NCBI GenBank assembly: GCA_951213105.1
Contig: OX578137.1
Coordinates: forward strand, 82,525,679 to 82,589,678
From: Amaurobius ferox
Taxonomy: Eukaryota > Arthropoda > Arachnida > Araneae > Amaurobiidae
Length of the DNA stretch: 64,000 nt
Direction of reading: 5' to 3'
Part shown: in pieces, positions 6,684-52,607 of the stretch
Layout: the number at the start of each line of letters is the position of its first letter
Position numbering within the stretch: position 1 is the first letter of the stretch
Position numbers and translations under genes: made by a program
The notes under the pieces: model-generated
Databases searched by the model: none
Seen by the model: only the letters and a program-made list of their open reading frames with translations
What the model was told of the DNA's origin: nothing

Positions 6684-6737
<54 letters not shown>

Positions 6738-6864: not shown

Positions 6865-6889
6865 TAACAAGTTATTAATAGTAAATAAT

Positions 6890-11805: not shown

Positions 11806-11812
11806 GTACGGC

Positions 11813-11990
11813 CATAAAGCCCACAAGCATAATGTTCAAAAGCTCACAAGCATAATGTTCAACAGCCTACAAGCATAATGTTCTCCATAAAGCCCACAAG
11901 CATAATGTGGGCTTTATGGAGAATAATAAAGGTAACATCTAATAAATATAAATATCTTTTACGACAATAATAAAGGTAACATCTAATGGA
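11813..11990. repeat. Tandem CACAAGCATAATG repeats with a perfect hairpin and a second direct repeat
   Basis: Four units built on CACAAGCATAATGT lie between 11813 and 11910. The last one forms a perfect 18-bp stem: TTCTCCATAAAGCCCACA (11881-11898), loop AGCATAA, complement 11906-11923. Directly after it, AATAATAAAGGTAACATCTA is present twice about 45 bases apart (from 11922 and from about 11965). Confidence 0.9.
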
Positions 11991-12841
11991 CCGACATCTA
12001 ATTCGTCTCCACACGCATGTCGTCAAGTATATTTAGACATATAGAAACGATTACCATGTTAAAGATGAATTATTAAAATGATAAATACACAAATCCCTGT
12101 GTAACATTATATAGTAAAATGCAGATGAATTATTCATTCTCGCGCAACTTTTACATACATTTGATTATTTTAGTTTAATCTCCCGAATGACTGATATAAT
12201 TCGTTCATGAAACCAGAAATTAAGCCAGAGATTATGTGATGTGTTATTTAGAGAAGACCAGGGACCTGAAACTAACCGGGGTGGTAACGTTAGTTTGAAA
12301 ATACATAAATACTTGTTTATCTGAAAGGGATCATATCGGACCCTGATGTTATATTCAAAATTTAAAAGTATATAAACATATATCCAATAATCATTATAGC
12401 CCGTTTACACATTTGCATAATTGAAACTTAAAATTGCTTAAATAAGAAATTAAAAAAGTACAGGGTTTTATAAAATTTAACTATTATTTAAGGGAATGAC
12501 ATAATTTAATAGGAATATTGCTTAGTTTTTAATGTAAATTGAATTATTTGCTATATGTTATGTTAGTACATACGTAATATTAGTAAGAAATACAATACAT
12601 AATAATTTGTATAAATATATTTTTTAATTTTCTAAAACGTATTTTATTGACTTATTTTTTAATCTAGTTAGTGAATCAGAGTTTATCGTTAATTCATACC
12701 TTCAAAACCCTCATAAAAAGCATTTTGAAGCCTTATTTATATTCTCTGTAAATTACTTGGTGATGAACAAACAATCTAATAAAGTTGCTTCATTTCTATT
12801 CACTGTTTTTTGGAATTATTAATTGAGTTAGGATTTTCAAA
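11991..12841. other. AT-rich stretch with no recognised gene
   Basis: No repeat, RNA gene or credible ORF seen. Confidence 0.5.
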
Positions 12842-13774: not shown

Positions 13775-15125
13775 TGGATTTAAGTTTAACTTTGGAAAAA
13801 AACCCTTTAATTCGACAAGTTTTATTAAATATGTGCATTCTTCATTACTACCTAAATCATCTAAGATTGCTGACAATGCTTGTTACATAATCTGCTCTCA
13901 AATAGATATGTATATTATGTACGTTTAATCTACTTTCTATTCTGTTAAGTTCTTAAGTCCTTATACTTTCTGATTATTTTAGACACAAGTTTAAGTGATT
14001 TTTTTATACTTTCCAATAATTAATAATGCTTTTCTTAAATCCCAGTCCCTGTTGCTCTAAAAAAATGGCGTAAAGTTTAAAATTCATCTTTCTTTGATTT
14101 CTATGTATCGAAATAAAATCAGAACCATCAATCTCATTCATTGAAAAATATAGAGAGCGAAAACGTGTTCCTTGACCTCAATTTCTCATTCTTTGGCGAT
14201 TTGATCCTTTGTTTGTCTCTTTCTGAAAGCTCCTTTGGATTAAGCAATTTTTCTTCTATTGCTGTGCATTGTGAAGTATATAGCACTGAATATATTTTAC
14301 ATTCCATTCGATTTTTGCATTTAGATTGTGTTATATTTTTACATCATAAATAATGAAATGAATAAATATGTGTTTAACTCACACTACTATGCAAATTAAA
14401 ATAAAATTACACGGTTAATAAAACAGCAAGGGGCATATATTATGGTGTGAACCCATTTCTCAGGCAAATCAGGCCAAAATGAGCATATTTTTGTGAGGAA
14501 AAGCAGGAAAATATCTCTCAGTGATTCATTATATTTCTTTACAAATTCGATATTTTTTGCTTTTGGTGAAAAGGCGGAGGAATGTTTTTTACGCCGCCTA
14601 TCTTTCTAATTTTATTTATTTATTTTATTTCTCCTCTGAACAGGTTGATACATCTAAATATTTATTTTTTGCAGTTTTACTTTACTAGCGATGCGCGAGT
14701 TTTTCAAGTTAGTTTATTTAAAATTGTTTATTAAAATTACTAGACTGAATTTCACGGCGTTGCCCTAATATAAGTATCCTGTTCAAATTTAGCCTTAAAT
14801 AATATAGATACAGATAGCACCAAATTTTGAAATCTCTTGTTTTGAACAGAAATCATGCCCGATCTCCATTTTTTCCTTGCGTAACCATGACAATTATAAA
14901 ACGCGGAATTTGCCCTAAATAAGTTTGATAAGCTCTAAATAAGCAGTTGGTCGATATTTTTCGGCCGAGCAATATAACGAAAATGCTGAAGCCGCAAAAG
15001 ACAAAATAGAATTTGCTTTGGCCTCGAAATAAAATTAAAAAGAAATATTGCTATCTCTGAAAATTTTAGCCAATGTGAGTCAGCTTTTAGCGCAATATCC
15101 ATAATGATAAAATAATACCAAATTA
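13775..15125. other. AT-rich stretch with no recognised gene
   Basis: Three ORFs of 69-91 codons are present, without motifs. GC content rises slightly near 14440-14600 but no family is recognised. Confidence 0.5.
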
Positions 15126-16335
15126 AACAAGAAAGATTAATCATGCATAAAGCATTGATTATGAAACACTTTCCAACTTCAATACAATTTTATTTAAACA
15201 TCTCTAAAATGCGATACATTCCTCGGTAATATTTTAAAAATTATCACAAAACTACAATAATTTATTATATTTGAAATCTTAAAACTTCATAAAAACAAAT
15301 GAACTTCATTTAAATGATTGCATTGAAATATAAATTGCCTGGTTTAAACATCTCTAAAATGCGATACATTCCTGTGTAATATTTAAAAAATTATCATAAT
15401 ACTACAATCATTTATTATGTTTGAAAACTTGCCACAAAAAGCAACTGAAAACAACTGCAATTTATCGAAAACAACTGAAATTTATTCAAATGACGTCATC
15501 GAAATATAAATCGTCTGACATCCTCTATAAAAGCAGCATTTCATTCATAAACGTATTTCCATTCCTTTCATTCATCACAATACTATAATAATTCATTTTA
15601 TTTAAAAATCTAAAACCAAGGAGGTACAAGTAATTTAACTCTATGCTTAAAACTTCACCGAAAAAATCATCTGGTTCTCTGTGTAAAATCAATGAATATT
15701 CATTCATGTCAGCTATATTGCAGACTCCATGAGCTAAATAATTTTGAATTAAAGAAATGCATAATTCTTATACAACTCATTCTGCATCTTTTGGTGTTTA
15801 CTTTCTCCATAATTGAAAATTAGGATTCGTTGTAGAAATAATCAAAGTTTGATGATTATTTAAACTCAAATATATTGTAATTGCGTTGTTTCAGTATGTA
15901 GATACATGGAATTTAAGCAAAAATGAAGCGGTTTTAGGTCGGATTCAACACTAAATATGAATTTAAAAGAACTTTAAAAATCACGATTTTGACACAAGAT
16001 GGATGCCATATTTTATTTTAAAGTAGGTCACGTGATCTCTTCATATAATGGTCAATTTGCGAATTTTAATTCCGCTTAAAAAATGTTTGAAAAATTAAGT
16101 CCCATAGGGTTTAATATATTTCATTTTTTCAACCCGGGTTCAATCCAAAACTAATTGGGTGATATTATTCATTTATATTCGCATATGTCCCACAGACCGT
16201 CTGAAAAACATACTAAAATTTTATTTTGATAAAGTCATTTTTACGGCTGTTATCGTGCTAACGGACAGACAGCCAGACAGGCAGAATGAACAAAGTCATA
16301 AACAATTTTAATCTTTGTTGTAAAGTGTTGTTAAA
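15126..16335 (+). mobile_element. Family C repeat, copy 2
   Basis: Same 5' end (AACAAGAAAGATTAATCATG) and 3' end (GTTGTAAAGTGTT, here followed by an extra GTT) as copy 1. It carries an internal direct duplication of about 150 bp: TTAAACATCTCTAAAATGCG at about 15193 recurs at about 15343. Copy 1 lacks the second unit and copy 4 has it. TGACGTCA is at 15491-15498 and TATAAAA at 15526-15532. Confidence 0.78.
15491..15532 (+). promoter_or_regulatory. CRE palindrome plus TATA box inside family C copy 2
   Basis: TGACGTCA (15491-15498) and TATAAAA (15526-15532), spaced 27 bases, followed by GCAGCATTTCATTCAT as in copies 1 and 3. Promoter function is inferred from motif conservation only. Confidence 0.4.
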
Positions 16336-18924: not shown

Positions 18925-19086
18925 TATATATGAAGTACCCTGTTTAAAGCTACGGTGAGATCAAATCGCGAACCCATTTCATTTAATGCAAAACTTATTG
19001 ACATTTACAAGACTCAATGTTTATTTTACGTTAAGTGGTAATAAATACATAAAATTGTATACACGGTCTTTGATATAGTGCCTTTA
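18925..19086. other. Short gap between mariner and family C copy 3
   Basis: Continuation of the AT microsatellite flank and ordinary sequence. No gene. Confidence 0.5.
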
Positions 19087-20377
19087 TTAACACTTCACAA
19101 CATAGTTGAAAAGTGTTTATGACTTTGTTCATTCTGTCTGTCTGTCTGTCTGCCCGTTAGCACGATAACTGCCGTAAAAATTACTTTATCAAAACGAAAT
19201 TTTCGTATGTTGTTCAAACGGTCTCTGTGGGACCTATGAGAATATAAATGAATAATATCACACTATTAGTTTTGGATTGAACCCTGGTTGAAAAAATGAA
19301 ATACATTGAACCCCATGGGACCTACTTTTTCAAACATGTTTTAAGCAAATTAAAATTCACAAATTGCTTCGAAAGTTTAAGGAAATATTCAAATTATCCC
19401 ATAAAATATTTATAAAAAAGACAGCAAAATATATTCAGTAGTTTTTTAAATAAAATTAAAATATTAATTACACCATTTATATGAAGATATCACATGCCCC
19501 ACTTCAAAATAAAATATGGCATCCATCTTGTGTCAAAATCGTGATTTTTAAAGTTCTTTTTAATTCATATTTAGTGTTGTATCCGTCATAAAACCGCTTT
19601 ATTTTTGCTTAAATTCTGTGCATCTACATAATGAAACAACGCAATTAAAATATATTTGAGTTTAAACGATCATCAAATTTTGATTATTTCTACAACGAAA
19701 CCTAATTTTCAGTTATGGAGAATGTACACATCAAAAGATGTAAAATGAGTTGTTCAAGAATTGCTGCATTTCTTTAAAGCAAAATTATATATCTCATGGG
19801 GGCTGCAATATAGCTGATATGAATGAAACATTCATTGATTTTACACAGAGAAGACGATTTTTTCTATAAAGTTTTAAGCATAGAGTTAAATTACTTGTAC
19901 CTCCATGATTTTAAGTTTTTAAATACAATAAATTAGCATAGTATTGTGACGAATGAAAGGATTGGAGAAAATTTTATGAATGAAATGCTGCTTTTATAGA
20001 GAGTGCCAGACGATTTATATTTTAATGACGTCATTTGAATAAAGTTCATTTGTTTTAGATCAAGTTTTCAAATATAATAAATTATTGTAGTATTATGATA
20101 ATGTTAAAAATATTACTGAAGGATTATTTTAGAGATTATACCCATTTTAGAGATGTTTAAACCATGCAATTTATATTTTAAAGCCGTCATTTGAATGAAG
20201 TTCATTATTTTCGATGAAGTTTTAAATTTTCAAATATAATAAATTAAACCGTATTGTGATAATTTTTAAAATATTACCGATGAATGTATCGCATTTAGAG
20301 ATGTTTATATAAAATTGCATTGAAGTTGAAAAGTATTACATAATCAATGCTTTATGCATGATTGTTCTTTCTTGTTT
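19087..20377 (-). mobile_element. Family C repeat, copy 3
   Basis: Reverse-oriented copy: the 3' hairpin (AACACTTCACAACATAGTTG, then AAAAGTGTT) lies at its left end, followed by the CTGT run and GTTAGCACGATAACTGCCGT. The 5' end, AATCAATGCTTTATGCATGA then TTCTTTCTTGTT, lies at 20341-20377. It has TGACGTCA at 20026-20033 and a minus-strand TATAAAA at 19992-19998. Confidence 0.78.
19992..20033 (-). promoter_or_regulatory. CRE palindrome plus TATA box inside family C copy 3
   Basis: The same TGACGTCA then TATAAAA spacing as in copies 1 and 2, read on the minus strand. Function inferred. Confidence 0.38.
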
Positions 20378-20698
20378 TTAATACTTATAGAAACTCTCAC
20401 AGAATAATAAAAGTAAATTGATAAGGACATCAAGTTATGAGTAAAATCTTCATATAAAATCTAATCCGTCGTTTAAAATATGCCCAAATAAGTAGTTCAA
20501 ATTGGGTTTTTATAGAAATAGTTTTATAATAAGAGCATACAGAAGAAAATATGGGTGTCAACCGGTTAAGAAGGTAAAAATCAGCCTTTCTTTTCAAGAA
20601 AAAGGCGAAGAGCGACCTCGCTCATTCAAACAAATTCGGCGTATGATGCCAAGCTTGCTTGAATAAGCAAAATTTTGCCTCGTATATGTCATAAAGTA

Positions 20699-21659
20699 AA
20701 AAGTCTGATGTGGGCAACAGATGACTTTCCTTATATAATGTAATGAATTTACTACTTTTACAGTAAAAAAATGGTTTTTTTTTATAGTAGATACTAATAT
20801 TCTTTCCAAGATATTGAATTTCCGACAATTAGTGGTCATTTTCATTGATTTAGAGTCATTTTTATCCATTTGGCGAGATTTTCGTTAATTTGGCAACATT
20901 TTAAAAAGTCGCCAAGTTGGCGACATTACACCAAAATCGTCGCCAAAATCTCGCCAAGCCTTATGGACGAAGAAATAAGTTGTTCTTACAGCAGATAAAT
21001 GACTATTGGGGTTCAAATATAAAATATTACTCAAAGTATCTTTTCCCATGAATGGAACGAGCTAGATCCACGAGAATGATATCATCTAATTTATCGCATG
21101 GTATTACATATGAAAAGGGAACATGTTTCTCAATAGGAAGTATTTTTTTTTGCATTTCATATGACTTTTTGATATTTTTTAATGTGCAATATCTCGAGAA
21201 CGGTTCATTTTAGCGTTCTAAAATTTATGTCAATCGTTTTCTAATGAAAAATTTCATAAGAAATGTCTATTTGCGTAACTTTATTAGTGGTTTTGATTTT
21301 TTGACGATTTTTTCAAAATTTTATTCGAAAATTTAGGGTGGTTCTGAACATGCGATTACGTATAAAAACAATAGGCTTCCAGTGTTTACAGATTGTGATT
21401 TTTGTACCAAATTTCGTTCGAATCGGTTCATTCGATCGTCAGTTATCGTCTCCACAGGCTCACTGACACACACACGCACACGCACGCACGCACACACATC
21501 CTTTCACACACACACACGCACATACAGACATCACCTCAAAACTGTTTGATCCGTGATCAGGGATGCTTTAAAAACGTGCTTTCCCGTCGAAAACTCGAAT
21601 TCGAATTTTCAACCCCGTCACAATACTTTCCTTATACATTATGTGTATAAGGAAAGTAA
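20699..21659 (+). mobile_element. Family A repeat, copy 2
   Basis: Complete copy, from TCTGATGTGGGCAACAGATG to the 3' hairpin ACTTTCCTTATA / TATAAGGAAAGT (one base changed in the loop). The CA microsatellite at 21467-21530 contains CACGCACG variants. Minus-strand ORFs at 20594-20869 are carried by the repeat and are not genes. Confidence 0.8.
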
Positions 21660-21713
21660 TATAGTGAGTTACATTCTATCTATCAAAAGATGTGCTATAT
21701 AAACATAAAGTAC

Positions 21714-21742
21714 AACATAAAAGCAAATAACACACACTCATA

Positions 21743-21784
<42 letters not shown>

Positions 21785-21911
21785 TCACTTCAAAAATGTT
21801 TGATTCGTGATCAGGGATGCTTGAAACGCGCTCTCCTGTCAAAAACTCGAATTCGAATTTTCGACCCCGTCACAATTCTTTCTTTATACATTATGTATAT
21901 AAGGAAAGTAA
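21714..21911 (+). mobile_element. Family A repeat, 3'-end-only copy
   Basis: It begins within the CA microsatellite (ACACACACTCATACTTTCAC) and continues to the usual 3' hairpin and GTAA. The other roughly 750 bp of the family are absent. Only 54 bases separate it from the end of copy 2. Confidence 0.8.
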
Positions 21912-23623
21912 AAAGTCGTGTTTCAAAAAAGCGCCGAACTTGCTTGAATAAGTAAGTTTGTGCGTTTTGTTGTTCCGGAAGAAAAAAGCAGTTGTATTCT
22001 CGAAACTGTTCGATAGTCTTATTTTATATTATATGCTGCAATCGAGCGAAACTTTTCTACAAAACTCGAAGGCATCATTTTTTTTTTTTCATTTCTACCA
22101 GCTTCTGGAATCCAATTACGGCATTTAACGTGCATAATTCCGGCGTGAGAAATGATCCAGGAAAACTATTCTATATGCTCTGCTATCTCGCTGTGACGAA
22201 AAGTTATAACCGTTCCAACTACTTACTATCTATAAGTTTAACTATACATTTTAGCTGATTTAATGAAGAATTCAACATTATATTTAGAAATTCTATTTCT
22301 GTTGTAGATTCCTCCGTGGAGATTATGCAAACATCTGAAGCATTTGCCAAAAATATTTCACTGGATTTCTAGAAACAATGGCTATATTTCACTGAAATTG
22401 AGATCAAAACTTTTTAATCAATTGATATCTCAGGTTTGAAAGAACAACCTCCAACTGGTAAAACACTGGCTACCTGCTAATAGACATAGGCGATGCTGTT
22501 TCTAATACAATTAAGATAAAAATTTTGAGTATACTGCAGTATATATATGAATACCAAGATACATATTAAACAGACAATATATAAAAACAATATATACAAT
22601 ATGTAAATACCAAAATACATATTAAAAAGGCAATCTATGACAGAGTCTTTATTGAAAAATGGCATGTACCCTTTATTTATTTCTAACTCGAATACAAAGT
22701 AATTTTATTCTCATTTGCAAATTTATTTTACACAGTAATATGAATTTTCGGAAAAAACCGGAAGTGTCATACACAGAACAGGAAATTAAAATCCTTAGTA
22801 AACCCAACTAATCACTTTTAAAATTTAGTGCTGAATCCATACCAGTTAGCATCTAAGCTTTAACTAGATATAGATATTTGAAGAAAATATTTTGAACTGG
22901 AAGTGAAAAAGATTTTGGAAGTGAAAATGTTTTTGAACCCTGACTTCCTCAGAAATTGAATGATGAATTGGCTTTAGTCAATTCAGTAGTCTTAACGTAA
23001 AGTTCTATCGCAACGTAAGCTCTGTTGACTTAAACTATATCGCATAAACGTAAACTCTATCTACAACCAATCTTAAGAAATAGACGTTTAAAGAAAAATA
23101 TTTACAACGACAGGGGGGAAGAGATTGAAGTGAAAATCCTTAGTAAACTCCCGACCCCTCCAGCATTTTATCTTGAACCATATCAGTCATCATCTAAGTT
23201 TTGTCTATAGCATATCCTGAGAAATAGATGTTTCAAGGCGAAAACTATCCAGTAAACAATAATATGACAAAAATTTTGCCACCAATAAATATAGTGTCTA
23301 TAATACATCAAAAATGCATTACATTAATTTGATTTTAAGATTTTTCAAACACAGATGAAGTAGGAAAGTGTATGTATGCGTTAGACCTCATTTAAAACTG
23401 AAAGGTGTACTTCTGTAAATCACAATATAAATGTGTTGCAAAAAATGGAACTTTCTAAATATTCATTCCAGGTGTAAATATTTTGGTAGAATGTTCGAAC
23501 ACAATACATTCAATCTATAAATATTTAAATCAACGCAATCGTCAAAGTATGCACGACATGCAAACAAGCTAAACAGAAAGTAATGCTACTGCTCAGACAA
23601 ATGACAGAAGATGATATTGCTCA
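21912..23623. other. Anonymous stretch with a weak direct repeat
   Basis: AAAATCCTTAGTAAAC with similar following sequence (CCATA or ACCATA, then CAGT, ATCATCTAAG) occurs at about 22790-22880 and again at about 23120-23215, suggesting an old duplication. ORFs of 62-88 codons show no motif. The stretch ends at the A (23623) before the first Helitron. Confidence 0.45.
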
Positions 23624-23645
23624 TCTATATAAATAAAATTGAAAA

Positions 23646-23695
<50 letters not shown>

Positions 23696-26040
23696 CCATC
23701 ATCACGGGAGAACGGCTGAACCGAATTTGATGAAATTTTGTGGGTAGCCTAGAAATAGCCCCACTTAACATTTAGTTTATGTTTGAAATTTCTACGACCA
23801 GTGGTTCTCGAGATATTAGTAAAAAACGAAACTTTCGTTTATCTCATCATCACGAGAGAACGGCTGAACCGAATTTAATGAAATTTTATGGGTGGCCTTG
23901 AAATAGCCCCCCATAAATGTTGCCCAAGTTTCGAGTTTCTAAGGCCAGGGGTTGTTGAGATATTAATGAAAAACGGAACTTTTTTTATAGGAGTTCTACT
24001 CTCCAACTCCGTGGTTTATCCAAACGCAAAGGATAAAAATCGTTTGTTTAAAACGTCAAAGGGAATTAAAACCTTATGTTTGAGTTTGATGCAGGATTTT
24101 TGCATTAAATAGTCACTATCTGAAAGCATGAATTGTTTGAAACATGAATTTAAATGGAAAAATCTACCTCCATGTTTTGTATTTGACAAGCTTTTACTCA
24201 ACGATTAGAAGTATAAAGGTATTAAAATGGTTATTTAATTTCGCATTTTATGAGGAAGATTCTATCTTATATCGTGTTGCTCGGCCAAGGAATGAAATTA
24301 AATATGTTTGCTAATGATTATTATTATTTTTTCGATTTGAATATTAAATAAATGGGTATTGAAATATATCTTATAAATGAACGGTTTGATTTTTTTTTAA
24401 TTATATTAATTGCGAACTGCATACACCACTTTCATTTATTTTAGCAAAGAGGTTTTAAGCTTATATATTGTGTTTAGCTAATAAACTCATATTTTGTTTA
24501 CCCAATAAATTCATTTATCCAATTGTTTAAACAGAAAATAAATGGTGTTTCGTTAGCATTTGTCTGTCAGTCCAACCGCCCTACTTAGTAACACATTTAG
24601 CGAATTTTTGAAATGTCACCAAATTGATAAAAATATTTATAAATCCATAAACATATTTTGAAATTGATAAATTGGCCTAAATAAACGAAATTGTGTTTTT
24701 TTAGGGGATAATATTTTGATGATGGTTCGTCAATTTATCGCCAAGTGGGACTGTCAGTTCTACAGTCCCACTTGGCGATAAATTTGGCGATTTTTTAAAA
24801 TGTCACCAAATTGATAAAAATATTTATAAATCCATAAAAATATTTTGAAATTGATAAATTGCCCTAAATAAACGAAATTGTGTTTTTTTAGGGGATAATA
24901 TTTTGATGATGGTCCGTCAATTTATCGCCAAGTGCGACTGTCAGTTCTACAGTCCCACTTGGCAATAAATTTGGCGATTTTTTAAAATGTCGCCAAACCT
25001 TCATTAGAGATATTCAGACGATATTTTGACCACCAATTTATTTGAAGCAAATCATAACATGTCGCTTAAAAACGGATTTAAATTTAATGTGTTTATGAGG
25101 AAGAAGGTTTTTATTAAATCTTTTCCGATTTTAATGATGAAGATATGTATATAAAATAAATTTCATTGATATCGTATTTTTGACTGGATAATATCAATTA
25201 CGATCTTCATGTTTAAACATTATTATTATTGATGCTTTCGGGGATTATTGATTCAGAGATTATTGATATGTTCAATTTCTTATGGCATTGTTTTATTGCG
25301 GCAAAAATTGTTGAAACTCATATATTGTACGTTGTACGAGTAATCTTCTACAAATGCACGGGTATATCTTCTAATCTAAAAGAATATAAGTAGTACATGT
25401 ATATTGGCATATATTGGAATCGAGCCTTCCGGTATGAAGATGGCAGGGATTATTGATATTTTTAATTTATTAAGTAATCTGTTATATATTGGTAAAAAAT
25501 TTTCAGACTACATATTATAATACGGGTAATCCTTTACTAACACTAGGACATATCTTCTAATGTATGACATTATAAGTAGTACGGGTTTATCTTCCCATAT
25601 AATTTTAGCACTTTCATTTGGGCACATATTGGAATTAATTATTGCCTACTGATTTAAAGATTACGGATTTATTGATATTTTCAATTTATATATGTAATCT
25701 ACTAATACAGGTTATATCTTCTAATATTCGCGTATATAAGTAGTACGGATCCCATACAACACGCTATTGTTCTGCATATATTGATTCAATTCCATACTTT
25801 TTATAAATTTGCTTACAAAAAGGCCAGGATATTTTATTCTTCAGATCTACCCGTGAAGATAATTTTGAATAACGAGAACAGCCATTCCTTAACTTCTTTT
25901 TAGGAGCATTATGTTAAATATTTTAACAGAATATTTTGATTAAAAATGCCATTTTGTATACTATAGGAATTTGCACATGATTGTGAATTTTAAGTTTATT
26001 TATATTATATACTCCGTACGAAGAACGGGTATGCTGCTAG
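23624..26040 (+). mobile_element. Helitron copy Hel-1 (non-autonomous)
   Basis: The element begins 5'-TCTATATAAATAAAATTG after an A, and ends with an imperfect hairpin (CCGT, loop ACGAAGA, ACGG) followed about 10 bases later by CTAG at 26037-26040. These are the textbook Helitron ends: 5'-TC, a 3' hairpin, then CTRR. Inside are a CTGT microsatellite (23646-23690), two tandem units of about 145 bp with the motif GAGAACGGCTGAACCGAATT, and a 187-bp direct duplication (24602-24788 and 24789-24975). No Rep/helicase ORF is present, so it would depend on an enzyme supplied in trans. Confidence 0.88.
24732..24784. repeat. Perfect 23-bp hairpin inside Hel-1
   Basis: AATTTATCGCCAAGTGGGAC plus TGT at 24732-24754 is exactly complementary to 24762-24784 across a 7-base loop. 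A second copy with two mismatches lies at 24919-24971, and related copies at 27881-27935 and 31704-31760. Confidence 0.95.
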
Positions 26041-26062
26041 TCTATATAAATAAAAATGAAAA

Positions 26063-26116
<54 letters not shown>

Positions 26117-26768
26117 ACACCATCACGGGAGAACGGCTGAACCGAATTTGATGAAATTTTGTGGGTAGCCCAGAAATAGCCCCACTTAAAATTATATCCG
26201 TGTTTTGAGTTTCTACGATCAGTGGTTCTCGAGATATTAGTAAAAAACAAAATTTTCGTTTGTCTCATCATCACGGAAAAACGGCTGAACCGAATTTAAT
26301 GAAATTTGGTGAATAACCTTGAAATATCCCCCCATAAATTTTGTTCAAGTTTCGAGTTTCTAAGACCTGGGGTTGTCGAGATATTAATGGAAAACGGAAC
26401 TTTTTCCTAGGAGTTCTACTCCCTAACTCCGTGGTTTATCCAAACGAAAAGCTTGAAAATCGTTTCAAAGTGAATTAAAATTTAATCTCTGAGTTTGATG
26501 GGAGATTTTTTGCGTTAATTAGTCACTTTCTGAAAACGTGAATTGTTTGAAACATGATTTAAAGGGGAAATCTATCTCCATGGTTCATGGTTTATTTAAA
26601 ACAAGCTTTTACGGAACAATGAGAAGTATAGAGAAATCAAAATCGTTATTTAATTTCGCAGTTTATGTTATAAGATATGACATATTTAACATGTTATAAG
26701 ATTGTATCTTATATCATGTTACTCAGAAACGCAATTAAATTAAATCTGTCTGGTAATTTTAATAATTA
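26041..26768 (+). mobile_element. Helitron copy Hel-2, 5' part
   Basis: It starts TCTATATAAATAAAAATG directly after the CTAG of Hel-1 with no base between. It holds the CTGT run (26064-26111) and the paired GAACGGCTGAACCGAATT units. It stops at AATAATTA (26768), where the minus-strand Hel-3 is inserted. Its sequence resumes at 30179. Confidence 0.88.
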
Positions 26769-29700
26769 CTAGCAGCATACCCGTTCTTCGTACGGAGTAT
26801 ATAATATAAAGAAACTTGAAATTCATAATCATGCCCAAATTCTTATAGTATACTAAATGACATGTTTAATCAAAATATTCTGTTAAAATATTTAATATAA
26901 TGCTCCTAAAAAGAAGTTTAAGAATCTCTGTTCTCGCTATATAAAATTATCTTCATGGACATATCTGAAGAATGAAACATCTTGGACCCCTTATGTAAGC
27001 AAATATAAAAAAAAAATATGGAATTGAATCAATATATGCAAAATAAAAGCGTTAAAATTGTATGGGACCCGTACTAATTATATACGCGAATATTAGAAAA
27101 TATAACCTGTATTAGTAGATTACATGTATAAATTGAAAATACCAATAAACCCGTAATCTTTAAATCTGAAGACAGTCATTTATTCCAATATATGTCAAAA
27201 TTAAAGTGCTAAAATTATATGGGAAGATATACACGTACTACTTATAATGTCCGATTATTAGTAGAAAATTACCCGCTTTGCAATATGAGTCTCAAATGTT
27301 TTTTGGTAAAATACAACAGACGACGTAATAAATTGAATAAATAATTAATCCCCGTAATCTTCATACCAGAAGACTGTACTTGATTCCAATATATATGCCA
27401 ATATATGTCAAAATATATGCCAATATACCTGTACTACTTATATTCTCGTAGGTTAGAAGATATACCCGTGCATTCCTAGAAGATTACTCGTACAACGTAC
27501 AATATGCGTGTGTCAGCAATTTTTGCCGCAATAAAACAATGGCGTAATAACTTAAAAATATCAATAATCACTGAATCAATAATTCCGGAAAATATCAATA
27601 ATAATAATGTTTAAACCTGAAGAGTATAATTGATATTATCCAGTCCAAAATGAAATGGCAATGAAATTTATTTTATATACATATCTTCATTATTCAAATC
27701 GGAAAGGATTTAATAAAAATCGTCTGCCGCATAAACACATTGGATTTAAATCCGTTGCTAAGCGACATGATATCATTTGCTTCAAATAAATTGGTAGAAA
27801 AAATATCGTCTAAATAGTTATATTTCTATGGAACATTTGGCGACAATTTCGTCAAATTAGCGACAATTTAAAAAATCGCCAAATTTATCGCCAAGTGGGA
27901 CTGTAGAACTGACAGTTCCACTTTGCGACAAATTGACGAAATATCATCACAATACTATCCCCTAACAAAAAACAATTAATATCATTTATGTAGCGCAATT
28001 TTATCAATTTCAAGATATTTTTATAGATTTGAAAACATTTTTATCAATTTGGTGACATTTTAAAAATTCGCTAAATGTATTACTAAGTAGGATGGTTGGT
28101 CTGACAGATAAATGCTAACCAAACATCATTTCAGTACTCTCTTCTAACAAAAAAAAAAAAATTTCATTGATATGTAGAAGACCCAAGCCACACGACCAAC
28201 CCGAAGGTTTATGGCAGCTGTTTGTGTGTCGTTTATATCAATTTGGCGACATTTCCGTCAATTTGGCAAAGTTTAAGAAAAGTTGTCAAATTAGCGATAT
28301 CCCTCCAAATTCGTAGCTTTGAATTTGCAGATCTGAATGAAACATTCTTATCCCGTTTCAATATACTAAATGAAAACACTACAATTGTATTAGAAGATAT
28401 ACCCGCTCTACTCTTTTTCTCTTTCAACAATCGGCTATATGAATTTATTGGCTAAACACAATATATGAGTTTAGTAGCTAAATACGATATAAGCTTGAAA
28501 ACTCTTTGCCAAAATAAATGAAATTGATGTACGCAGTCAGCAATTAATATAATTAAAAGAAAAATCAAACCGTCCATTCATAAGATATACTTTTATATCC
28601 ATTTATCCATTTATTTATTATTTAAATCGAAAAAAAATAATAAAAACATTAACAAACACATTTAATTTAATTGCGATGTCGAGCAACATGATATATCCTC
28701 CTAAAATGTTAAAATTTATTAACCACTAACAGCACACCCGTTATTCGTACGGAGTGTATAATTTAAAGAAACTTATAGTTCGCAATCATGTGCAAATTCT
28801 GTTAAAATATTAAATTTATTGCTCCTAAAGAGAAGTTTAAGAATATATGTTCTCACTATGCAAAATTATCTTCACGATCAGATCTGAAGAATAAAACATC
28901 CTGCCCCCTTTTGTAAGCAAATTTACAGAAGAAAAAATAGGAATTGAATGAATATATGCAACCCCGTACTAATTATATTGTCGCAGATCAGAAAATATGC
29001 CAATGTCTTAGTAGAAGATTACCCGTATTACAATATGCGTCTCAAAAATATTTGCCAAAATAAAAGAGATGACGTAATAAATTGAAAACATCAATAATAT
29101 CCGTACTCTTTATACCAGAAGGTCGTAATTGATTCCAATATATGCCAATATATATCAAAACATATGTCAATATACCTGTACTACTTATATTCTCGTAGAT
29201 TAAAAGATATACACGTGTATTTGTAGAAGATTCGTACAACATACAATATATGAGTTTAAACAATTTTTGTCATAATAAAATAATTGCATAATAACTTGAA
29301 AATATCAATAATCCTTGAATCAATAATCCCCGAAAATATAAATAATAATAATTTTTAAACCTGAAGACCGTAATTGATATTATCCAGTCAAAAATGCTAT
29401 AAGAAAAATCAAATCGTTCTTTTCTAAAATATATTTTTATATCCATTTATTTATTATTCAAATCGAAAAAATAATTATTAAAATTAACAGACAGATTTAA
29501 TTTAATTGCGTTTCTGAGTAACATGATATAAGATAGAATCTTATAACATGTTAAATATGTCATGTCTTATAACATAAACTGCGAAATTAAATAACGATTT
29601 TGATTTCTCTATACTTCTCATTGTTCCGTAAAAGCTTGTTTTAAATAAACCATGAACCATGGAGATAGATTTCCCCTTTAAATCATGTTTCAAACAATTC

Positions 29701-30122
29701 ATTTTTTCAGAAAGTGACTAATTAACGCAAAAAATCTCCCATCAAACTCAGAGATTAATTTTAATTCACTTTCAAACGATTTTCAAGCTTTTCGTTTGGA
29801 TAAACCACGGAGTTAGGGAGTAGAACTCCTAGGAAAAAGTTCCGTTTTTCATTAATATCTCGACAACCCCAGGTCTTAGAAACTCGAAACTTGGACAAAA
29901 TTTATGGGGGGATATTTCAAGGCTATTCACCAAATTTCATTAAATTCGGTTCAGCCGTTTTTCCGTGATGATGAGACAAACGAAAATTTCGTTTTTTACT
30001 AATATCTCGAGAACCACTGGTCGTAGAAACTCAAAACACAGATATAATTTTAAGTGGGGCTATTTCTGGGCTACCCACAAAATTTCATCAAATTCGGTTC
30101 AGCCGTTCTCCCGTGATGGTGT

Positions 30123-30155
<33 letters not shown>

Positions 30156-30178
30156 ATTTTCATTTTTATTTATATAGA
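26769..30178 (-). mobile_element. Helitron copy Hel-3, inserted in Hel-2
   Basis: A complete minus-strand element: the CTAG end is at 26769-26772 with its hairpin just inside, and the 5'-TC end is at 30177-30178. At 3410 bp it is longer than Hel-1 because it contains an additional unit with a decayed internal 3' end near 28729-28765. It is very similar to Hel-2 along its whole length. The plus ORFs at 28222-28455 and 29965-30177 and the minus ORF at 29042-29263 are non-coding artefacts of the repeat and recur as mirror images in Hel-2. Confidence 0.88.
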
Positions 30179-32872
30179 TTTTTTCGATTTGAATAATAAA
30201 TAAATGGATATAAAAATATATTTTAGAAAAGAACGATTTGATTTTTCTTATAGCATTTTTGACTGGATAATATCAATTACGGTCTTCAGGTTTAAAAATT
30301 ATTATTATTTATATTTTCGGGGATTATTGATTCAAGGATTATTGATATTTTCAAGTTATTATGCAATTATTTTATTATGACAAAAATTGTTTAAACTCAT
30401 ATATTGTATGTTGTACGAATCTTCTACAAATACACGTGTATATCTTTTAATCTACGAGAATATAAGTAGTACAGGTATATTGACATATGTTTTGATATGT
30501 ATTGGCATATATTGGAATCAATTACGACCTTCTGGTATAAAGAGTACGGATATTATTGATGTTTTCAATTTATTACGTCATCTCTTTTATTTTGGCAAAT
30601 ATTTTTGAGACGCATATTGTAATACGGGTAATCTTCTACTAACACATTGGCATATTTTCTAATCTGCAACAATATAATTAGTACGGGGTTGCATATATTC
30701 ATTCAATTCCTATTTTTTCTTCTGTAAATTTGCTTACAAATGGGGGCCGGATGTTTTATTCTTCAGATCTGATCGTGAAGATAATTTTGCATAGTGAGAA
30801 CATATATTCTTAAACTTCTCTTTAGGAGCAATAAATTTAATATTTTAACAGAATTTGCACATGATTGCGAACTATAAGTTTCTTTAAATTATACACTCCG
30901 TACGAATAACGGGTTCCTGTTAGTGGTTAATAAATTTTAACATTTTAGGAGGATATATCATGTTGCTCGGCATCGCAATTGAATTAAATGTGTTTGTTAA
31001 TGTTTTTATTATTTTTTTTCGATTTAAATAATAAATAAATGGATATAAAATATATCTTATGAATGGACGGTTTGATTTTTCTTTTAATTATATTAATTGC
31101 TGACTGCGTACATCAATTTCATTTATTTTGGCAAAGAGTTTTCAAGCTTATATCGTATTTAGCTACTAAACTTATATATTGTGTTTAGCCAATAAATTCA
31201 TATAGCCGATTGTTGAAACAGAAAAAGAGTAGAGCGGGTATATCTTCTAATACAATTGTAGTGTTTTCATTTAGTATATTGAAACGGGATAAGAATGTTT
31301 CATTCAGATCTGCAAATTCAAAGCTACGAATTTGGAGGGATATCGCTAATTTGACAACTTTTCTTAAACTTTGCCAAATTGACGGAAATGTCGCCAAATT
31401 GATATAAACGACACACAAACAGCTGCCATAAACCTTCGGGTTGGTCGTGTGGCTTGGGTCTTCTACATATCAATGAATTTTTTTTTTGTTTGGTTAGAAG
31501 AGAGTACTGAAATGATGTTTGGTTAGCATTTATCTGTCAGACCAACCATCCTACTTAGTAATACATTTAGCGAATTTTTAAAATGTCACCAAATTGATAA
31601 AAATGTTTTCAAATCTATAAAAATATCTTGAAATTGATAAAATTGCGCTACATAAATGATATTAATTGTTTTTTGTTAGGGGATAGTATTGTGATGATAT
31701 TTCGTCAATTTGTCGCAAAGTGGAACTGTCAGTTCTACAGTCCCACTTGGCGATAAATTTGGCGATTTTTTAAAATGTCGCTAATTTGACGAAACTGTCG
31801 CCAAATGTTTCATAGAAATATAACTATTAAGACGATATTTTTTCTACCAATTTATTTGAAGCAAATGATATCATGTCGCTTAGCAACGGATTTAAATCCA
31901 ATGTGTTTATGCGGCAGACGATTTTTATTAAATCCTTTCCGATTTGAATAATGAAGATATGTATATAAAATAAATTTCATTGCCATTTCATTTTGGACTG
32001 GATAATATCAATTATACTCTTCAGGTTTAAACATTATTATTATTGATATTTTCCGGAGTTATTGATTCAGGGATTATTGATATTTTTAAGTTATTACGCC
32101 ATTGTTTTATTGCGGCAAAAATTGCTGACACACGCATATTGTACGTTGTATGAGTAGTCTTCTAGGAATGCACGGGTATATCTTCTAACCTACGAGAATA
32201 TAAGTAGTACAGGTATATTGGCATATATTTTGACATATATTGGCATATATATTGGAATCAAGTACAGTCTTCTGGTATGAAGATTAAGGTGATTAATTAT
32301 ATATTCAATTTATTACGTCGTCTGTTGTATTTTACCAAAAAACATTTATGACTCATATTGCAAAACGGGTAATCTTCTACTAATAATCGGACATTATAAG
32401 TAGTACGTGTATATCTTCCCATATAATTTTAGTACTTTAATTTTGACATATATTGGAATAAATGACTGTCTTCAGATTTAAAGATTACGGGTTTATTGGT
32501 ATTTTCAATTTATACATGTAATCTACTAATACAGGTTATATTTTCTAATATTCGCGTATATAATTAGTACGGGTCCCATACAATTTTAACGCTTTTATTT
32601 TGCATATATTGATTCAATTCCATATTTTTCTTTTATATTTGCTTACATAAGGGGTCCAAGATGTTTTATTCTTCAGATATGTCCATGAAGATAATTTTAT
32701 ATAGCGAGAACAGATATTCTTAAACTTCTTTTTAGGAGCATTATATTAAATATTTTAACAGAATATTTTGATTAAACATGTCATTTAGTATACTATAAGA
32801 ATTTGGGCATGATTATGAATTTCAAGTTTCTTTATATTATATACTCCGTACGAAGAACGGGTATGCTGCTAG
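30179..32872 (+). mobile_element. Helitron copy Hel-2, 3' part
   Basis: Continues Hel-2 from TTTTTTCGATTTGAATAATA to the hairpin and CTAG at 32869-32872. Joining 26768 to 30179 reproduces the uninterrupted sequence seen inside Hel-3. It contains a decayed internal 3' terminus at 30889-30923 (CTCCGTACGAATAACGGG, then CTGTTAG). Confidence 0.88.
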
Positions 32873-32875
32873 TCT

Positions 32876-32897
32876 TCTATATAAATAAAATTGAAAA

Positions 32898-32943
<46 letters not shown>

Positions 32944-35151
32944 CCATCATCACGGGAGAACGGCTGAACCGAATTTGATGAAATTTTGTGGGTAGCCTAG
33001 AAATAGCCCCACTTAAAATTTAGTCTATAGTTGGAATTTCTACGACCAGTGGTTCTCGAGATATTAGTAAAAAACCAAACTTTTGTTTGTCTTATCATCA
33101 CGAGAGAACGGCTGAACCGAATTTAATCAAATTTTGTGGGTGGCCTTGAAATAGCCCCCCATAAATTTTGCCCAAGTTTCAAGTTTCTAAGACCAGGGGT
33201 TGTCGAGATATTATTGAAAAACGGAACTTTTTTTATAGGAGTTCTACTCTCCAACTCCGTGGTTTATCCAAACGGAAAGGATAAAAATCGTTTGTTTAAA
33301 GCGTCAAAGGCAATTAAAACTTTATTTTTGAGTTTGATGCAGGATTTTTGCATTAAATAGTCACTATCTGAAAGCATGAATTGTTTGAAACATGAATTTA
33401 AATGGAAAAATCTACCTCCATGTTTTTACATGTATTAACCTCCATGTATTTCACAAGCTTTTAAACAACGATTAGAAGTATAAAGAAATTAAAATGGTTA
33501 TTTAATTTCGCATTTTATGAGGAAGATTCTATCTTATATCATGCTGCTCGGCAAAGGAATGGAATTAAATGTGTTTGTTAATGATTATTATTATTTTTTC
33601 TATTTGTATAATAAATAAATGGATGTAAAAATATATTTTATAAATGAACGGTTTGATTGTTCTTTTAATTATATATATTGCGGACTGCGTACATTATTTT
33701 TATTTATTTTAGCAAAGAGGTTTCAAGCTCATATATTGTGTTTAGCTAATAAACTCATAATAAATGAACGGTTTGATTGTTCTTTTAATTATATATATTG
33801 CGAACTGCGCACATCACACTTTTATTTATTTTAGCAAAGAGGTTTCAAAGCTCATATATTGTGTTTAGCTAATAAACTCATATATTGTGTTTACTCAATA
33901 AATTCATTTAGCCGATTGTTGAAGCAGAAAAAGAGTAGAACGGATGTATGTATCTTCTAATACAATTTTAGTGTTTTCATTTAGTATATATACAGACGGG
34001 TTATGGATATTTTATTCTTCAAATCTGCAAATTTAAAGCTACGAATTTAGCGGAATATCTCTAAATAACTTGGTAACTTTTCTGAAACTTTACCAAATTA
34101 GAGGAAATATCTCCAAATTGATAAAAATGACCCAAATCAATGAAATTAAATTTGTTTTTTTAGAATAGAGTACTGAAATGATGTTTCTGTAGCATTTGTC
34201 GGTCAGTCCATCCATCCTACTTAGTAACACATTTAACTAATTTTTTTAATATCACTAAATTGATAAAAATATTTGTAAATCCATAAAAATATCACGGAGA
34301 CGAAAATGTCGCCAAACCTTCCATGGAGATCACATTATTCAAACGACATGATTTCCATCAATTTATTTGAAGCAGATGATATCATGTCGCTTAGCAACGG
34401 ATCCAATGTGTTATGTGTCATACGATTTTTATTAAATCTAATAAAAATATGTATATAAAATAAATTTCATTGACATTGCATTTTTGACTGGATAATATCA
34501 ATCACGGTCTTCAGGTTTAAACATCATTATTATTGATATTTCGGGGACAGTTGATTCAGGAATTATTGATATTTTCAAATTATTATGCTATTGTTTCATT
34601 ATGACGAAAATTGTTGAAACTCATATATAGTACGTTGTACAAGTAATCTTCTACAAATGCACGGGTATATCTTCTAATCTACGAGAATATAAGTAGTACA
34701 AGCATATTGGCAAAATTTTTATATATATTGGCATATATTGGAATCAATTACGACCTTCTGGTATTAAGATTACGGGGATTTTTGATACTTTCAATTTATT
34801 ACGTCAACCTTTTTATTTTGGTAAATATTTTTAAGACTCATATTACAATATGTTTAAGCTTCTACTAACACACTGGCATATTTTCTAATTTGCGACAATA
34901 TAAGTAGTACGTGGTTGCATATATTGATTCAATTCTTTTTTTTTGTGTGTGTGAATTTGTTTACAAAAGGGGCCAAGATATTTTATTCTTCAGATTTGCC
35001 CGTGAAGATAATTTTGCATAGTGAGAACAGATATTCTTAAACTTCTCTTTATGAGCAATAAATTTAATATTTTATCAGAATTTGCACATGATTGCGAATT
35101 ATAAGTTTTTTTATATTATATACTCCGTACGAAGGACGGGTATGCTGCTAG
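32876..35151 (+). mobile_element. Helitron copy Hel-4
   Basis: It starts TCTATATAAATAAAATTG three bases after the end of Hel-2 and ends with a variant hairpin (CCGTACGAAGGACGGG) and CTAG at 35148-35151, followed by T. It includes a CTGT run (32899-32940) and a 120-bp direct duplication (33641-33760 and 33761-33882). It lacks the 23-bp hairpin of Hel-1. No protein is encoded. ORFs at 33136-33360 and 33619-33834 follow repeat sequence. Confidence 0.88.
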
Positions 35152-41085: not shown

Positions 41086-41800
41086 TCCAAATAGTTGCTC
41101 TTAGTCCTCTGGACGAGTCGGACGGTCTGGGTCTTCAACACTGCCCATTTTGCCAACGGCCGTACCGTGCTGAAAACACCGGTTCTCGTTAGATCACCGA
41201 AGTCAAGCAGCATCGGGCGCGGTTAGTACTTGGTGGGTGACCACCTCCGAACACCGCGTGCTGTTGGCCATCTCGGGTGCGGTATCCCCGTGGTTTGCGC
41301 GCTAGATTTGCACGCTACCACAAATGCCGCCGTGTTCATGCGGAGTACGATCACGTTAAACATGTGGGTCCGTAAGTCCTTCCGAGAGGTTGGTGGTAGG
41401 GGAAGGAGGGTACGGTCCCTGTGGATGCCTCCCCCACTGGGTTCCGGTCGAAATTGGGTGGCACTTCCCGGCCTTCCATACAGTTACCTTACACCTTTCT
41501 GGTAGGTCGGACGGTCTGGGTCTCAACAACAACAACACTGCCCATTTTGCTGCTCCATGTCCTCGGACGAGTCGGTCGGCCTGGGCTTTCGACACTTATT
41601 TATCACGTAGGTCGGACGGTCTGGGTCTCAACAACACTCATTTATCGCCGGTCACTCAAACTTCCACTGTAAGCCCTAGAGCCAGTCGAGTGGTCTGGGA
41701 TTTCGACACTCGTTTATCGGCAGGTCACTCAAACAACTGCTGTCAGTCTTAGGGCCAGTCGAGTGTCTGGGTCTTCAACACTCGTTTATCGTCGTATATT
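41086..41800 (+). repeat. Minisatellite-like array of SINE-tail units
   Basis: The motif CGAGTCGGACGGTCTGGGTC plus CAACACT and a following ATTTAT or CCCATTTT recurs at about 41110, 41500, 41570, 41608, 41675 and 41752, with spacing of roughly 40-80 bp after the SINE. A unit also precedes the 5S head at 41152. The tail is the one the 5S-SINE ends with. Confidence 0.7.
41152..41537 (+). repeat. SINE with 5S rRNA-derived head, copy 2
   Basis: 41152-41268 is a 5S rRNA-like sequence (GCCAACGGCCGTACCGTGCT, CACCGGTTCTCGTTAGATCA, AAGTCAAGCAGCATCGGG, GGTGGGTGACCACCT, then GTGCTGTTGGC). It is followed by a tRNA-like segment (GGTGCGGTATCCCCGTGGTT, then TTTGCAC), the same body as the copy at 8640-9029, and the tail GGTCTGGGTCTCAACAACAA. 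The downstream sequence proves it is not a plain 5S gene. ORFs at 41230-41752 in several frames are artefacts. Confidence 0.88.
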
Positions 41801-42198: not shown

Positions 42199-43588
42199 CA
42201 CTTCGTGAAATTGAAAATGAGATACCAAGATAGAGTGGACAGAAAAATATGCAAATTGCAGGGTAGACGCAGCTCAACGAGTCATGTAAATGATGCGAAA
42301 TGGGCAAATGTATCGCGCAAGCGGAGTGAGATATAAGGGAAGGAACCTGCAGAATCGGCAATAGTCGCACCGCACTGTCTGCCAGAGAAATCATTTTGCA
42401 TTTTTTTCTGAAAAGAAATAAAGGTGTAGTAGCAGAGAATGCCAGGCTCCCGATAACCGAGAAAGATCCAGCAGACATACGATTTCACGAGGGGCATGGT
42501 GATCGGACCCAGTAGGGCAGGTTGGCCCATACGTCGAATCTCAGCGGATAACCATCTACACGCATCCACGTCGCACCCGCTGTGGCGAAGATGGTTGGAA
42601 CAAGGGAATGTGAGACGTATGAGGGGTGCCGGAACGGCCAGAGCGACGGCAGCACGCGTGGACCGAAGCATCCGTCGGCAAGCATTAGTGACCCCGCAGG
42701 CCACTTCCGTCGCCCTTTTGCAGCATGTGCAGGACACCATTGATACTCCTATATCGACCAGGACCATTATCTGTCGACTGGTCTCCGGCGACCTGCAATC
42801 ATGGCACCCGTTAAGAAGACTGGTATTGAACCGACAGTACAGACGCCTCCGTTTGCAATGTTGTCGGGATAGAGCCACGTGGATGGCGGAATGGCACAGG
42901 GTCGTGTTCTCAGAGGAATCATACTTCTGTTTTATCAATAACTGTCTCCGTGTACGAGTCTGGTGCCGAAGTAGTGACAGATCCAATCGGACTGCATCTG
43001 TGAAACGTCACACCGCGCATCTGTGGAGCGCCATCACCTACTATAGCAGGTCACCTCCTGATCCATATTGAGAGCACTAAGACGGCCCAACGATACGTAG
43101 ATGATGTACTGAGGCCGGTAACACTACCCTTACTTCAGGGGTGCCCAATGCCATTTACCAGCAGGATAACTCCCGACCACACACGGAACGCATCAGCCAA
43201 CATTCCCTGTAAGGTAACCAGAAGCTTTTCTGGCCATCAGGGTCCCCTGATTTCTCACCAATCGAACACGTCTGGGACGTGATTGGACATCACTTACGTG
43301 CGCTGCCACCGCCGCGTTCAGAAGACGAACTCTGGCAAATGATTGACAGGGAATTTGCAACCATTCATCAGGACACCATCCGCATACTCATTGACTCTGT
43401 ACCTAGATGTGTTGCTGCCTGTATCGCTGCCCGCGGTGGTCCTACAATCTGCTGATCATACCGTGATATCGCTCAGTGTACCATGTTTCAATAAACATCA
43501 CTTGATTGTTGCTGTCACTCTCTGTTTGCTAATTTTCAGCAGTTTCCGCCCACTCCTTCTTTATGTCTCATTTCACTGTCATGCAGTG
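42199..43588 (+). mobile_element. Tc1-like transposon, copy 2
   Basis: Flanked by TA (42197-42198 and 43589-43590). Its inverted ends begin CAC and share GTGAAA, ATGAGA and AGAGTGG/AGGAGTGG stretches with mismatches. At 1390 bp it is nearly full length. The same family as 12844-13772 by its ends (CAC start, AAGAAGGA-like stretch). Confidence 0.8.
42468..43455 (+). pseudogene. Tc1-type DD34E transposase pseudogene
   Basis: The N-terminal helix-turn-helix (MVIGPSRAGWPIRRIS, then LWRRWLEQGN) and second DNA-binding domain read in one frame from 42496 to 43071. The true start appears lost just upstream, where FTRG precedes the Met. The first catalytic position reads FSEESYF, Glu where the family has Asp. 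After a stop at about 43069 the frame shifts: QQDNSRPHTERIS (second Asp) and SPIEHVWD (catalytic Glu) follow. It then ends in CVAACIAARGG just before a stop near 43455. With a changed catalytic residue and several breaks it is dead. The minus ORFs at 42041-42986 are antisense shadows. Confidence 0.88.

Positions 43589-50310: not shown

Positions 50311-50348
<38 letters not shown>

Positions 50349-52569: not shown

Positions 52570-52607
<38 letters not shown>

What the first reader, a model, noticed from the sequence alone, without database searches (positions are those of the whole stretch)
26041..32872. A Helitron inserted into its own sister copy in the opposite orientation, exactly at A|T
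Seen: Hel-2 stops at AATAATTA (26768) and resumes at TTTTTTCG (30179). Between them sits a complete minus-strand copy, Hel-3, with CTAG at 26769 and TC at 30178. The joined Hel-2 sequence matches the uninterrupted equivalent inside Hel-3, so the pre-insertion site is present in the insert itself. No bases are duplicated. Known: Helitrons insert between A and T without target duplication. The result is a 6.1-kb inverted repeat with arms of about 2.7 kb (26769-29471 and 30179-32872) and a 707-bp spacer, and the two copies look about 98% alike where I compared them. This is an unusually clean natural record of the reaction and suggests recent activity.
Basis: partly seen in the sequence, partly recalled or inferred. 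Interest (0 to 1): 0.75.

Follow-up and report, generated by a model that had tools for sequence, protein, structure and literature searches.

The report
Helitrons repeatedly hitting one own site
A jumping gene called a Helitron has landed backwards inside a sister copy, and relatives of it have done so at exactly the same two-letter spot more than twenty times in this genome, which makes it a natural test of how Helitrons choose their targets.

The parts
26041..26768 (+). Hel-2 (host, type E), 5' part P: 5' TC end to the insertion site; E positions 1-728
   Evidence: TC start joined directly to Hel-1's CTAG
26768..26769 (.). left junction A | (CTAG, minus strand) of the nested insertion; E 728
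   Evidence: same junction at 20 of the other 39 scored matches
26769..30178 (-). Hel-3 (insert, type E), complete 3,410-bp non-autonomous Helitron, TC at 30178, CTAG at 26769
26769..29471 (-). left arm of the inverted repeat (R part of Hel-3)
   Evidence: 98.4% to 30179-32872 inverted
29472..30178 (-). 707-bp spacer = P part of Hel-3, inverted copy of 26041-26768
29471..29472 (-). the uninterrupted equivalent (empty form) of the insertion site inside Hel-3
30178..30179 (.). right junction (TC, minus strand) | T of the nested insertion; E 729
30179..32872 (+). Hel-2 (host), 3' part R, ends CTAG; right arm of the inverted repeat; E positions 729-3422
28726..28751 (-). decayed internal 3' end (ends TTAG) in Hel-3; Hel-2 has the equivalent near E 1473: E looks like a fusion of a 1.4-kb Helitron with a second 3' part
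   Evidence: the L027 host, 1.4 kb, has an intact CTAG there
32841..32864 (+). 3' subterminal hairpin of Hel-2 (8-bp stem with one bulge, 8 bases before the end)
   Evidence: 14 of 200 shuffles fold as well
23624..26040 (+). Hel-1 (type H1), complete, upstream neighbour joined CTAG|TC to Hel-2; preceded by A
32873..32875 (+). TCT between Hel-2's CTAG and Hel-4's TC; origin not explained
32876..35151 (+). Hel-4 (type H4), complete, downstream neighbour; followed by T. A 96.3% copy is the insert at the same site in L048

Best explanation
Hel-3 is a canonical, non-autonomous Helitron that inserted between A and T of a sister copy in inverted orientation. That dinucleotide (E 728|729, TTTTAATAATTA|TTTTTTCG) is a recurrent landing site into which relatives of several subfamilies have inserted independently. 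Shown: the anatomy; the recurrence; different outer flanks; different host/insert pairs; no clade of hosts; 19 inverted, 0 direct and 7,855 empty exact forms. Inferred: that the cause is the transposase's own target preference. In 13 flanks outside the family the 3' side of the inserted element shows an A/T-rich stretch with consensus TATAAAATAAAAAT. In inverted orientation the site offers TAATTATTAAAATTA, in direct orientation TTTTTTCGATTTG. The same preference, plus the A that an insertion leaves in front of its TC, would explain the head-to-tail neighbours as further A|TC insertions at a resident 5' end. The site is one of several and not the most used.
For: Exact junctions, no duplication. 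21 of 40 scored matches are this site. Both junctions seen in 17 of 21; host TC and CTAG ends both seen in 14 of 21, and in L027. The 11 non-tandem outer 5' flanks among those 14 are all different and end in A; the base after CTAG is T in 14 of 14. Type pairs E/X, X/E, Y/E, H4/E, W/Z besides E/E; the Y and H4 inserts are only 89-90% alike. Ten E-in-E loci: 38 sites with a minor allele in two or more rows, 27 with it in both hosts and inserts, 0 fixed differences; hosts as one clade rejected, AU p 0.0007, 0.0001 on eight loci. Exact pattern counts: inverted 728 19, direct 728 0, empty 7,855. By my estimate (A|T at 12% of the genome, either orientation) about two million insertions would be needed to expect 19 by uniform choice. 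Motif from 16 + 14 flanks outside the family: A at -1 in 16 of 16, T at +1 in 14 of 14, first 12 bases on the 3' side 90% A/T; ranks of 902 in four settings: 3302 inverted 3, 37, 32, 7; 728 inverted 12, 10, 17, 81; 851 inverted 146, 95, 103, 104; 728 direct 647, 688, 575, 592; the exact counts are 89, 19, 1, 0 in the same order. Helraiser also leans to A/T on the 3' side (PMC4778049, passages).
Against: The probe could find only the inverted orientation; the 19:0 contrast rests on exact 28-base patterns, and 3 of 14 hosts have a changed R start that the direct pattern would miss. The motif rests on few flanks, and 9 to 16 other site-orientations in E (80 in one setting) score better, so preference alone does not single out 728. 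E 1792 direct, hit in two hosts, ranks only 164-306. Only four site-orientations were counted, and empty sites only for 728. The 89 matches at 3302 were not read one by one, and that stretch may exist in more copies. The E-in-E tree is close to a star (1 of 17 inner branches well supported); the type pairs force only about six events.
Confidence: 0.78

Rival explanations
1. One nested composite formed once and then moved around as a 6.8-kb Helitron, using Hel-2's outer TC and CTAG.
For: The 14 nests with both host ends preserved have canonical outer ends, as expected if the composite itself transposed. The E-in-E tree is star-like, so a nest formed at the start of the burst would leave few fixed differences.
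Against: Hosts as one clade rejected (p 0.0007; 0.0001 on eight loci and 0.001 on P alone). 27 of 38 informative sites carry the minor allele on both sides. Cannot explain the E/X, X/E, Y/E, H4/E and W/Z pairs nor the dimer inserts in L017 and L018.
Confidence: 0.08
2. One or few insertions were spread to other copies by ectopic gene conversion or unequal exchange between the many E copies.
For: Copies are 1.4-1.6% diverged and the empty site alone has 7,855 exact copies. L024 shows a local tandem duplication of insert plus about 123 bp, so exchange happens.
Against: Inserts of five kinds (E and X of about 3.4 kb, Y 2,292 bp, H4 2,287 bp, W about 1.19 kb) cannot come from one insert. Host and insert of one locus are no closer to each other (1.45%) than to those of other loci (1.47%), so no homogenisation is visible.
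Confidence: 0.09
3. A single chance insertion, otherwise unremarkable.
For: The window alone fits it.
Against: 20 of the other 39 scored matches, and one further place found by pattern, have the same junction.
Confidence: 0.03
4. Assembly error (false inverted duplication).
For: Inverted arms of 98% identity can mislead assemblers (general knowledge); reads were not seen.
Against: The break points are exact element ends at a canonical target; the arms differ (46 substitutions over the whole pair); the same form recurs with different partners on many contigs.
Confidence: 0.02

Closest known systems
Canonical Helitrons (Helitron1), e.g. bat Helibat/Helraiser (PMC4778049, passages seen)
   Same: 5' TC, 3' CTAG, 3' hairpin, A|T target without duplication, A/T-rich target with the bias strongest beside the 3' end
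   Different: 1,751 Helraiser insertions in human cells were mapped for general preference; the passages seen report no recurrent self-insertion site
Self-inserted or nested Helitrons in Fusarium (PMC5148889, passages) and maize (PMC3288121, passages)
   Same: Helitron inside Helitron, including a proposed opposite-orientation insertion that would explain reversed ORFs; nests as a source of composite elements with extra termini
   Different: In the passages these are single cases or inferred intermediates; here single dinucleotides are hit repeatedly by several subfamilies. The Fusarium elements resemble Helitron2, with other ends and targets
[quoted passage not shown]
   Same: CTAG|TC junction as at 26040|26041; [quoted passage not shown]
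   Different: Here three diverged units in a row, the middle one carrying an inverted nest
Helentrons / HINE / DINE-1 (PMC4067079, passages; PMC2374699, passages)
   Same: Non-autonomous rolling-circle elements, some with a microsatellite
   Different: DINE-1 inserts at TT or T-rich sites; the elements here end in CTAG and insert at A|T. That Helentrons lack CTRR ends is recalled

Membership tests
Canonical Helitron (Helitron1) | 5' terminus TC | tested here: met
Canonical Helitron (Helitron1) | 3' terminus CTRR | tested here: met
   CTAG
Canonical Helitron (Helitron1) | hairpin shortly before the 3' end | tested here: met
   8-bp stem with a bulge, 8 bases before the end; energy not exceptional, 14 of 200 shuffles fold as well
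Canonical Helitron (Helitron1) | insertion between A and T without target duplication | tested here: met
   A at -1 in 16 of 16 and T at +1 in 14 of 14 flanks outside the family
Canonical Helitron (Helitron1) | RepHel protein in an autonomous partner | not tested
   no search for it was run; the element itself has no ORF of 150 aa, so it is non-autonomous
Canonical Helitron (Helitron1) | transposition through a single-stranded or circular intermediate | not testable with these tools
   needs bench work
Helentron / HINE | T-T or T-rich target and no CTRR end | tested here: not met
   CTAG ends and A|T targets
Helentron / HINE | subterminal inverted repeats | not tested
   not looked for
Rolling-circle concatemer (tandem array by end bypass) | near-identical adjacent units made in one event | tested here: not met
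   aligned parts of the three units in the window differ by about 8-25% or more; consecutive A|TC insertion fits better

The most novel reading that the evidence does not exclude
The transposase reads an extended, strand-asymmetric target of a dozen bases on the 3' side, far beyond A|T, so single dinucleotides become several-hundred-fold hot spots with a fixed orientation. The family carries such targets in its own body and thereby keeps building long inverted repeats (arms about 2.7 kb) that could make double-stranded RNA and help silence it.
Probability: 0.15. Interest if true: 0.75.

Novelty: new variant of a known kind. Interest (0 to 1): 0.5.

Why it matters
How Helitrons choose targets is known mainly from one rebuilt bat element and a few plant families (from the papers seen, and recall). 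Here one site exists in 7,855 exact empty copies and has been hit about twenty times in one orientation and never found hit in the other, while a second site in the same element has up to 89 hits. That lets target choice and its strand asymmetry be measured from sequence alone. It also shows how nests, inverted repeats and head-to-tail rows can build up from canonical A|T insertions, and warns that identity between host and insert does not date a nest inside a high-copy burst.

Tried and rejected
A copied composite was my first idea; the trees and the mixed subfamily pairs argue against it. Rolling-circle concatemer for the Hel-1/Hel-2/Hel-4 row: rejected because the units are diverged. A first motif was trained partly on sites inside the family; it was replaced by a set free of family sequence. 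One of its 14 3' flanks is a duplicate (L026/L027), so 13 were used; L028's flank was dropped because the search had selected it. Two exact motifs of the element in viral contigs: 0 matches each. The empty-site search by sequence returned nothing although the window itself must match; the tool skips common words, and the pattern search then gave 7,855. My draft treated 728 as the hot site; searches show 89 exact matches at E 3302 inverted and 1 at E 851 inverted, so it is one of several. Odds for the best explanation went from 0.75 to 0.78 because counts follow motif ranks; rivals fell slightly. Direct insertions at E 1792 (L026/L027 duplicates; L027 at 9089) were met in passing and were not counted. 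tRNA scan: none.

Full report
OBSERVATION. The window holds a complete Helitron copy (Hel-3, 26769-30178, minus strand, 3,410 bp) inside another (Hel-2, 26041-26768 and 30179-32872). The host reads AATAATTA|TTTTTTCG across the site and the insert's own copy of that site reads the same, so nothing was duplicated or lost. The pair differs at 46 of 3,400 aligned columns plus 5 gaps, the largest being 20 bp in the (TCTG)n microsatellite. Of 3,421 dinucleotides in the element 457 are AT, so A|T alone would be met by chance in about 13%; exact TC and CTAG ends together with A and T on either side would not.

SURROUNDINGS. Hel-2 is the middle of three head-to-tail elements: Hel-1 23624-26040, Hel-2, Hel-4 32876-35151, with A before the first and T after the last. 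The CTAG|TC junction at 26040|26041 is what a canonical insertion at the A|T formed by a flanking A and the T of a resident TC end would give, one of two routes offered for maize (PMC2267711, passages). Hel-2 and Hel-4 are separated by TCT, which I cannot explain. The element, called E below (3,422 bp), has a decayed internal 3' end near position 1473. Its first 1.47 kb correspond to a 1.4-kb Helitron seen as the host in L027 (P 83.6%, R 91.2% identity), so E looks like a fusion by bypass of a 3' end (inference). No ORF of 150 aa lies in it; a 3' hairpin is present.

THE SAME NEST ELSEWHERE. A probe of 91 bases (29 host, 62 insert) gave 421 candidates, of which the tool scored 40; it can find the inverted orientation only. 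I read all 40: the window, L009-L028 and L029-L047. Twenty-one are the same inverted insertion at E 728|729: the window, L009-L027 and L039 (fetched in full as L048). One is an inverted insertion at E 851|852 (L042, in full L049), one lies in family sequence near E 1477 (L038), and 17 have flanks without family sequence at the junction that resemble TAATTATTAAAATTA (L028 and 16 of L029-L047; L043 has an element end 86 bases on), which is how the search ranked them. Both junctions are present in 17 of 21; L012, L014, L015 and L021 are cut or rearranged on one side. Host TC and CTAG ends are both preserved in 14 of 21 (window, L009, L010, L011, L013, L016, L017, L018, L019, L022, L023, L024, L025, L048), and in L027. 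The 11 of these 14 that are not joined to another element's CTAG have 11 different 24-base 5' flanks, all ending in A; T follows CTAG in 14 of 14. L026 and L027 are duplicates of each other (about 96-99% alike).

WHO IS IN WHOM. Host/insert pairs at the site: E in E at 14 loci (L012, L014, L015 and L021 judged from the parts present); E in X at L009 and L024 (X about 91.5% to E); X in E at L019; a 2,292-bp element Y in E at L025; a 2,287-bp element 96.3% alike to the window's Hel-4 in E at L048; a 1.19-kb element in a 1.4-kb element at L026/L027. The inserts of L025 and L048 are 89-90% alike in three stretches. These pairs alone force about six insertions. In L017 and L018 the inserted unit is a head-to-tail dimer, and in L024 the X host has inserts at 728 and at 851 with a local tandem duplication.

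ONE EVENT OR MANY WITHIN E IN E. Ten loci have a full insert and both host parts (L020's host is cut at 3302; of the dimers one unit was used). Mean distances are host-host 1.55%, insert-insert 1.39%, host-insert in the same locus 1.45%, host-insert between loci 1.47%. Of 38 sites with a minor allele in two or more rows, 27 have it in both hosts and inserts and none is fixed. The tree needs 9 label changes for 10 hosts (shuffled mean 7.0), and the hosts as one clade are rejected (AU p 0.0007; eight loci p 0.0001 and P alone p 0.001). A wider set that includes X copies gave p 1e-92, probably dominated by the X rows. The tree is nearly a star, so I do not claim 14 proven events in this class.

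COUNTS IN THE WHOLE GENOME (exact patterns, made while checking this report). Inverted junction at 728: 19, of which 18 are among the 21 above and one, on contig 16, is new and was not read further; L019, L020 and L048 have one changed base and are missed. Direct junction at 728: 0. Empty site: 7,855. So about 0.24% of exact sites are occupied. Inverted junction at E 3302: 89, not read one by one; inverted junction at E 851: 1. E 728 is therefore one of several recurrent sites and not the most used. My estimate: with A|T at 12% of the genome and either orientation allowed, about two million insertions would be needed to expect 19 at 7,855 sites by uniform choice.

WHY THIS SITE. Flanks outside the family (16 left, 14 right of which 13 independent) have A at -1 in 16 of 16 and T at +1 in 14 of 14; the first 12 bases on the right are 90% A/T, against 74% for the next 12 and 81% for the nearest 12 on the left. 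The right-hand consensus is TATAAAATAAAAAT; positions 1, 8-10 and 12 reach the 99% level of random columns, position 7 just misses it (background assumed 68% A/T). In four settings the ranks among 902 site-orientations are: 3302 inverted 3, 37, 32, 7; 728 inverted 12, 10, 17, 81; 851 inverted 146, 95, 103, 104; 728 direct 647, 688, 575, 592; the exact counts 89, 19, 1, 0 follow that order. Against it: E 1792 direct, hit in two different hosts, ranks only 306, 253, 305, 164. The 728 site lies in the second-longest A/T-only run of E, 21 bp, and its 16-bp 3' flank ranks 17th in low duplex stability against 434th for the direct orientation. Helraiser also leans to A/T on the 3' side (PMC4778049, passages).

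LITERATURE. Searches (openly licensed PMC papers only) led to papers on nested, composite and head-to-tail Helitrons (PMC5148889, PMC3288121, PMC2267711, PMC4067079; passages seen), on DINE-1 targets (PMC2374699, passages) and on general A|T preference (PMC4778049, PMC13286980; passages). In those listings and passages I saw no report of one Helitron dinucleotide hit repeatedly in one orientation by its relatives. Subscription papers and preprints were not covered.

VERDICT. The sequence claim is right. Its meaning is broader than stated: recurrent, oriented self-insertion in a canonical Helitron family of many thousand copies.

Noticed in passing
E 3302|3303 (window equivalent near 32752); L016 at 9144, L020 at 1571: A second inverted self-insertion site, with 89 exact pattern matches in the genome; two different inserts seen in L016 and L020.
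   Followed up: partly
L049 (whole); L024+L050 at 5285-12273: Inverted self-insertion at E 851|852: complete E in complete E in L049 (the only exact match in the genome), and E in X in L024, where insert plus about 123 bp of host is also duplicated in tandem.
   Followed up: yes
L026 4250-5741; L027 4246-5752 and 9089: Direct-orientation insertions at E 1792|1793 in two different hosts, so orientation differs by site.
   Followed up: partly
window 32873-32875: TCT between Hel-2's CTAG and Hel-4's TC; L025 has TAA at a comparable junction. Origin unexplained.
   Followed up: no
L017 (556-4156) and L018 (3894-7574): E copies that share an insertion of about 267 bp near E 1900-1976.
   Followed up: no
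window 41152-41537 (+) and 8642-9029 (-): Two copies of a repeat headed by 5S rRNA (Rfam RF00001) with a tail ending in CAACAACAACAA: looks like a 5S-derived SINE.
   Followed up: partly
window 839-1111: Stretch of about 270 bp that matches its own reverse complement at 75%; a sub-threshold Rfam match to MIR841 (41 bits against a gathering score of 200) is best read as this hairpin.
   Followed up: no
window 5890-6866, 20693-21915, 49521-50500, 50548-51347, 51779-52737, 53696-54069 (-): Family of about 0.97 kb starting TCTGATGTGGGCAACACATGACTTTCCTTATATAA and ending TATATAAGGAAAGTAA, with subterminal inverted repeats; two copies are 99.2% alike.
   Followed up: no
window 1894-3056, 15125-16335, 19083-20380 (-), 58356-59660: Another dispersed family of about 1.1-1.3 kb (AACAAGAAAGATCAATCATGCATAAAGCATTGATTATG ... 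GTTGTAAAGTGTTAA).
   Followed up: no
window 7371-8321 (-) and 42496-43071 (+): Reverse transcriptase ORF (PF00078) and a Tc3-like transposase fragment (PF01498).
   Followed up: no
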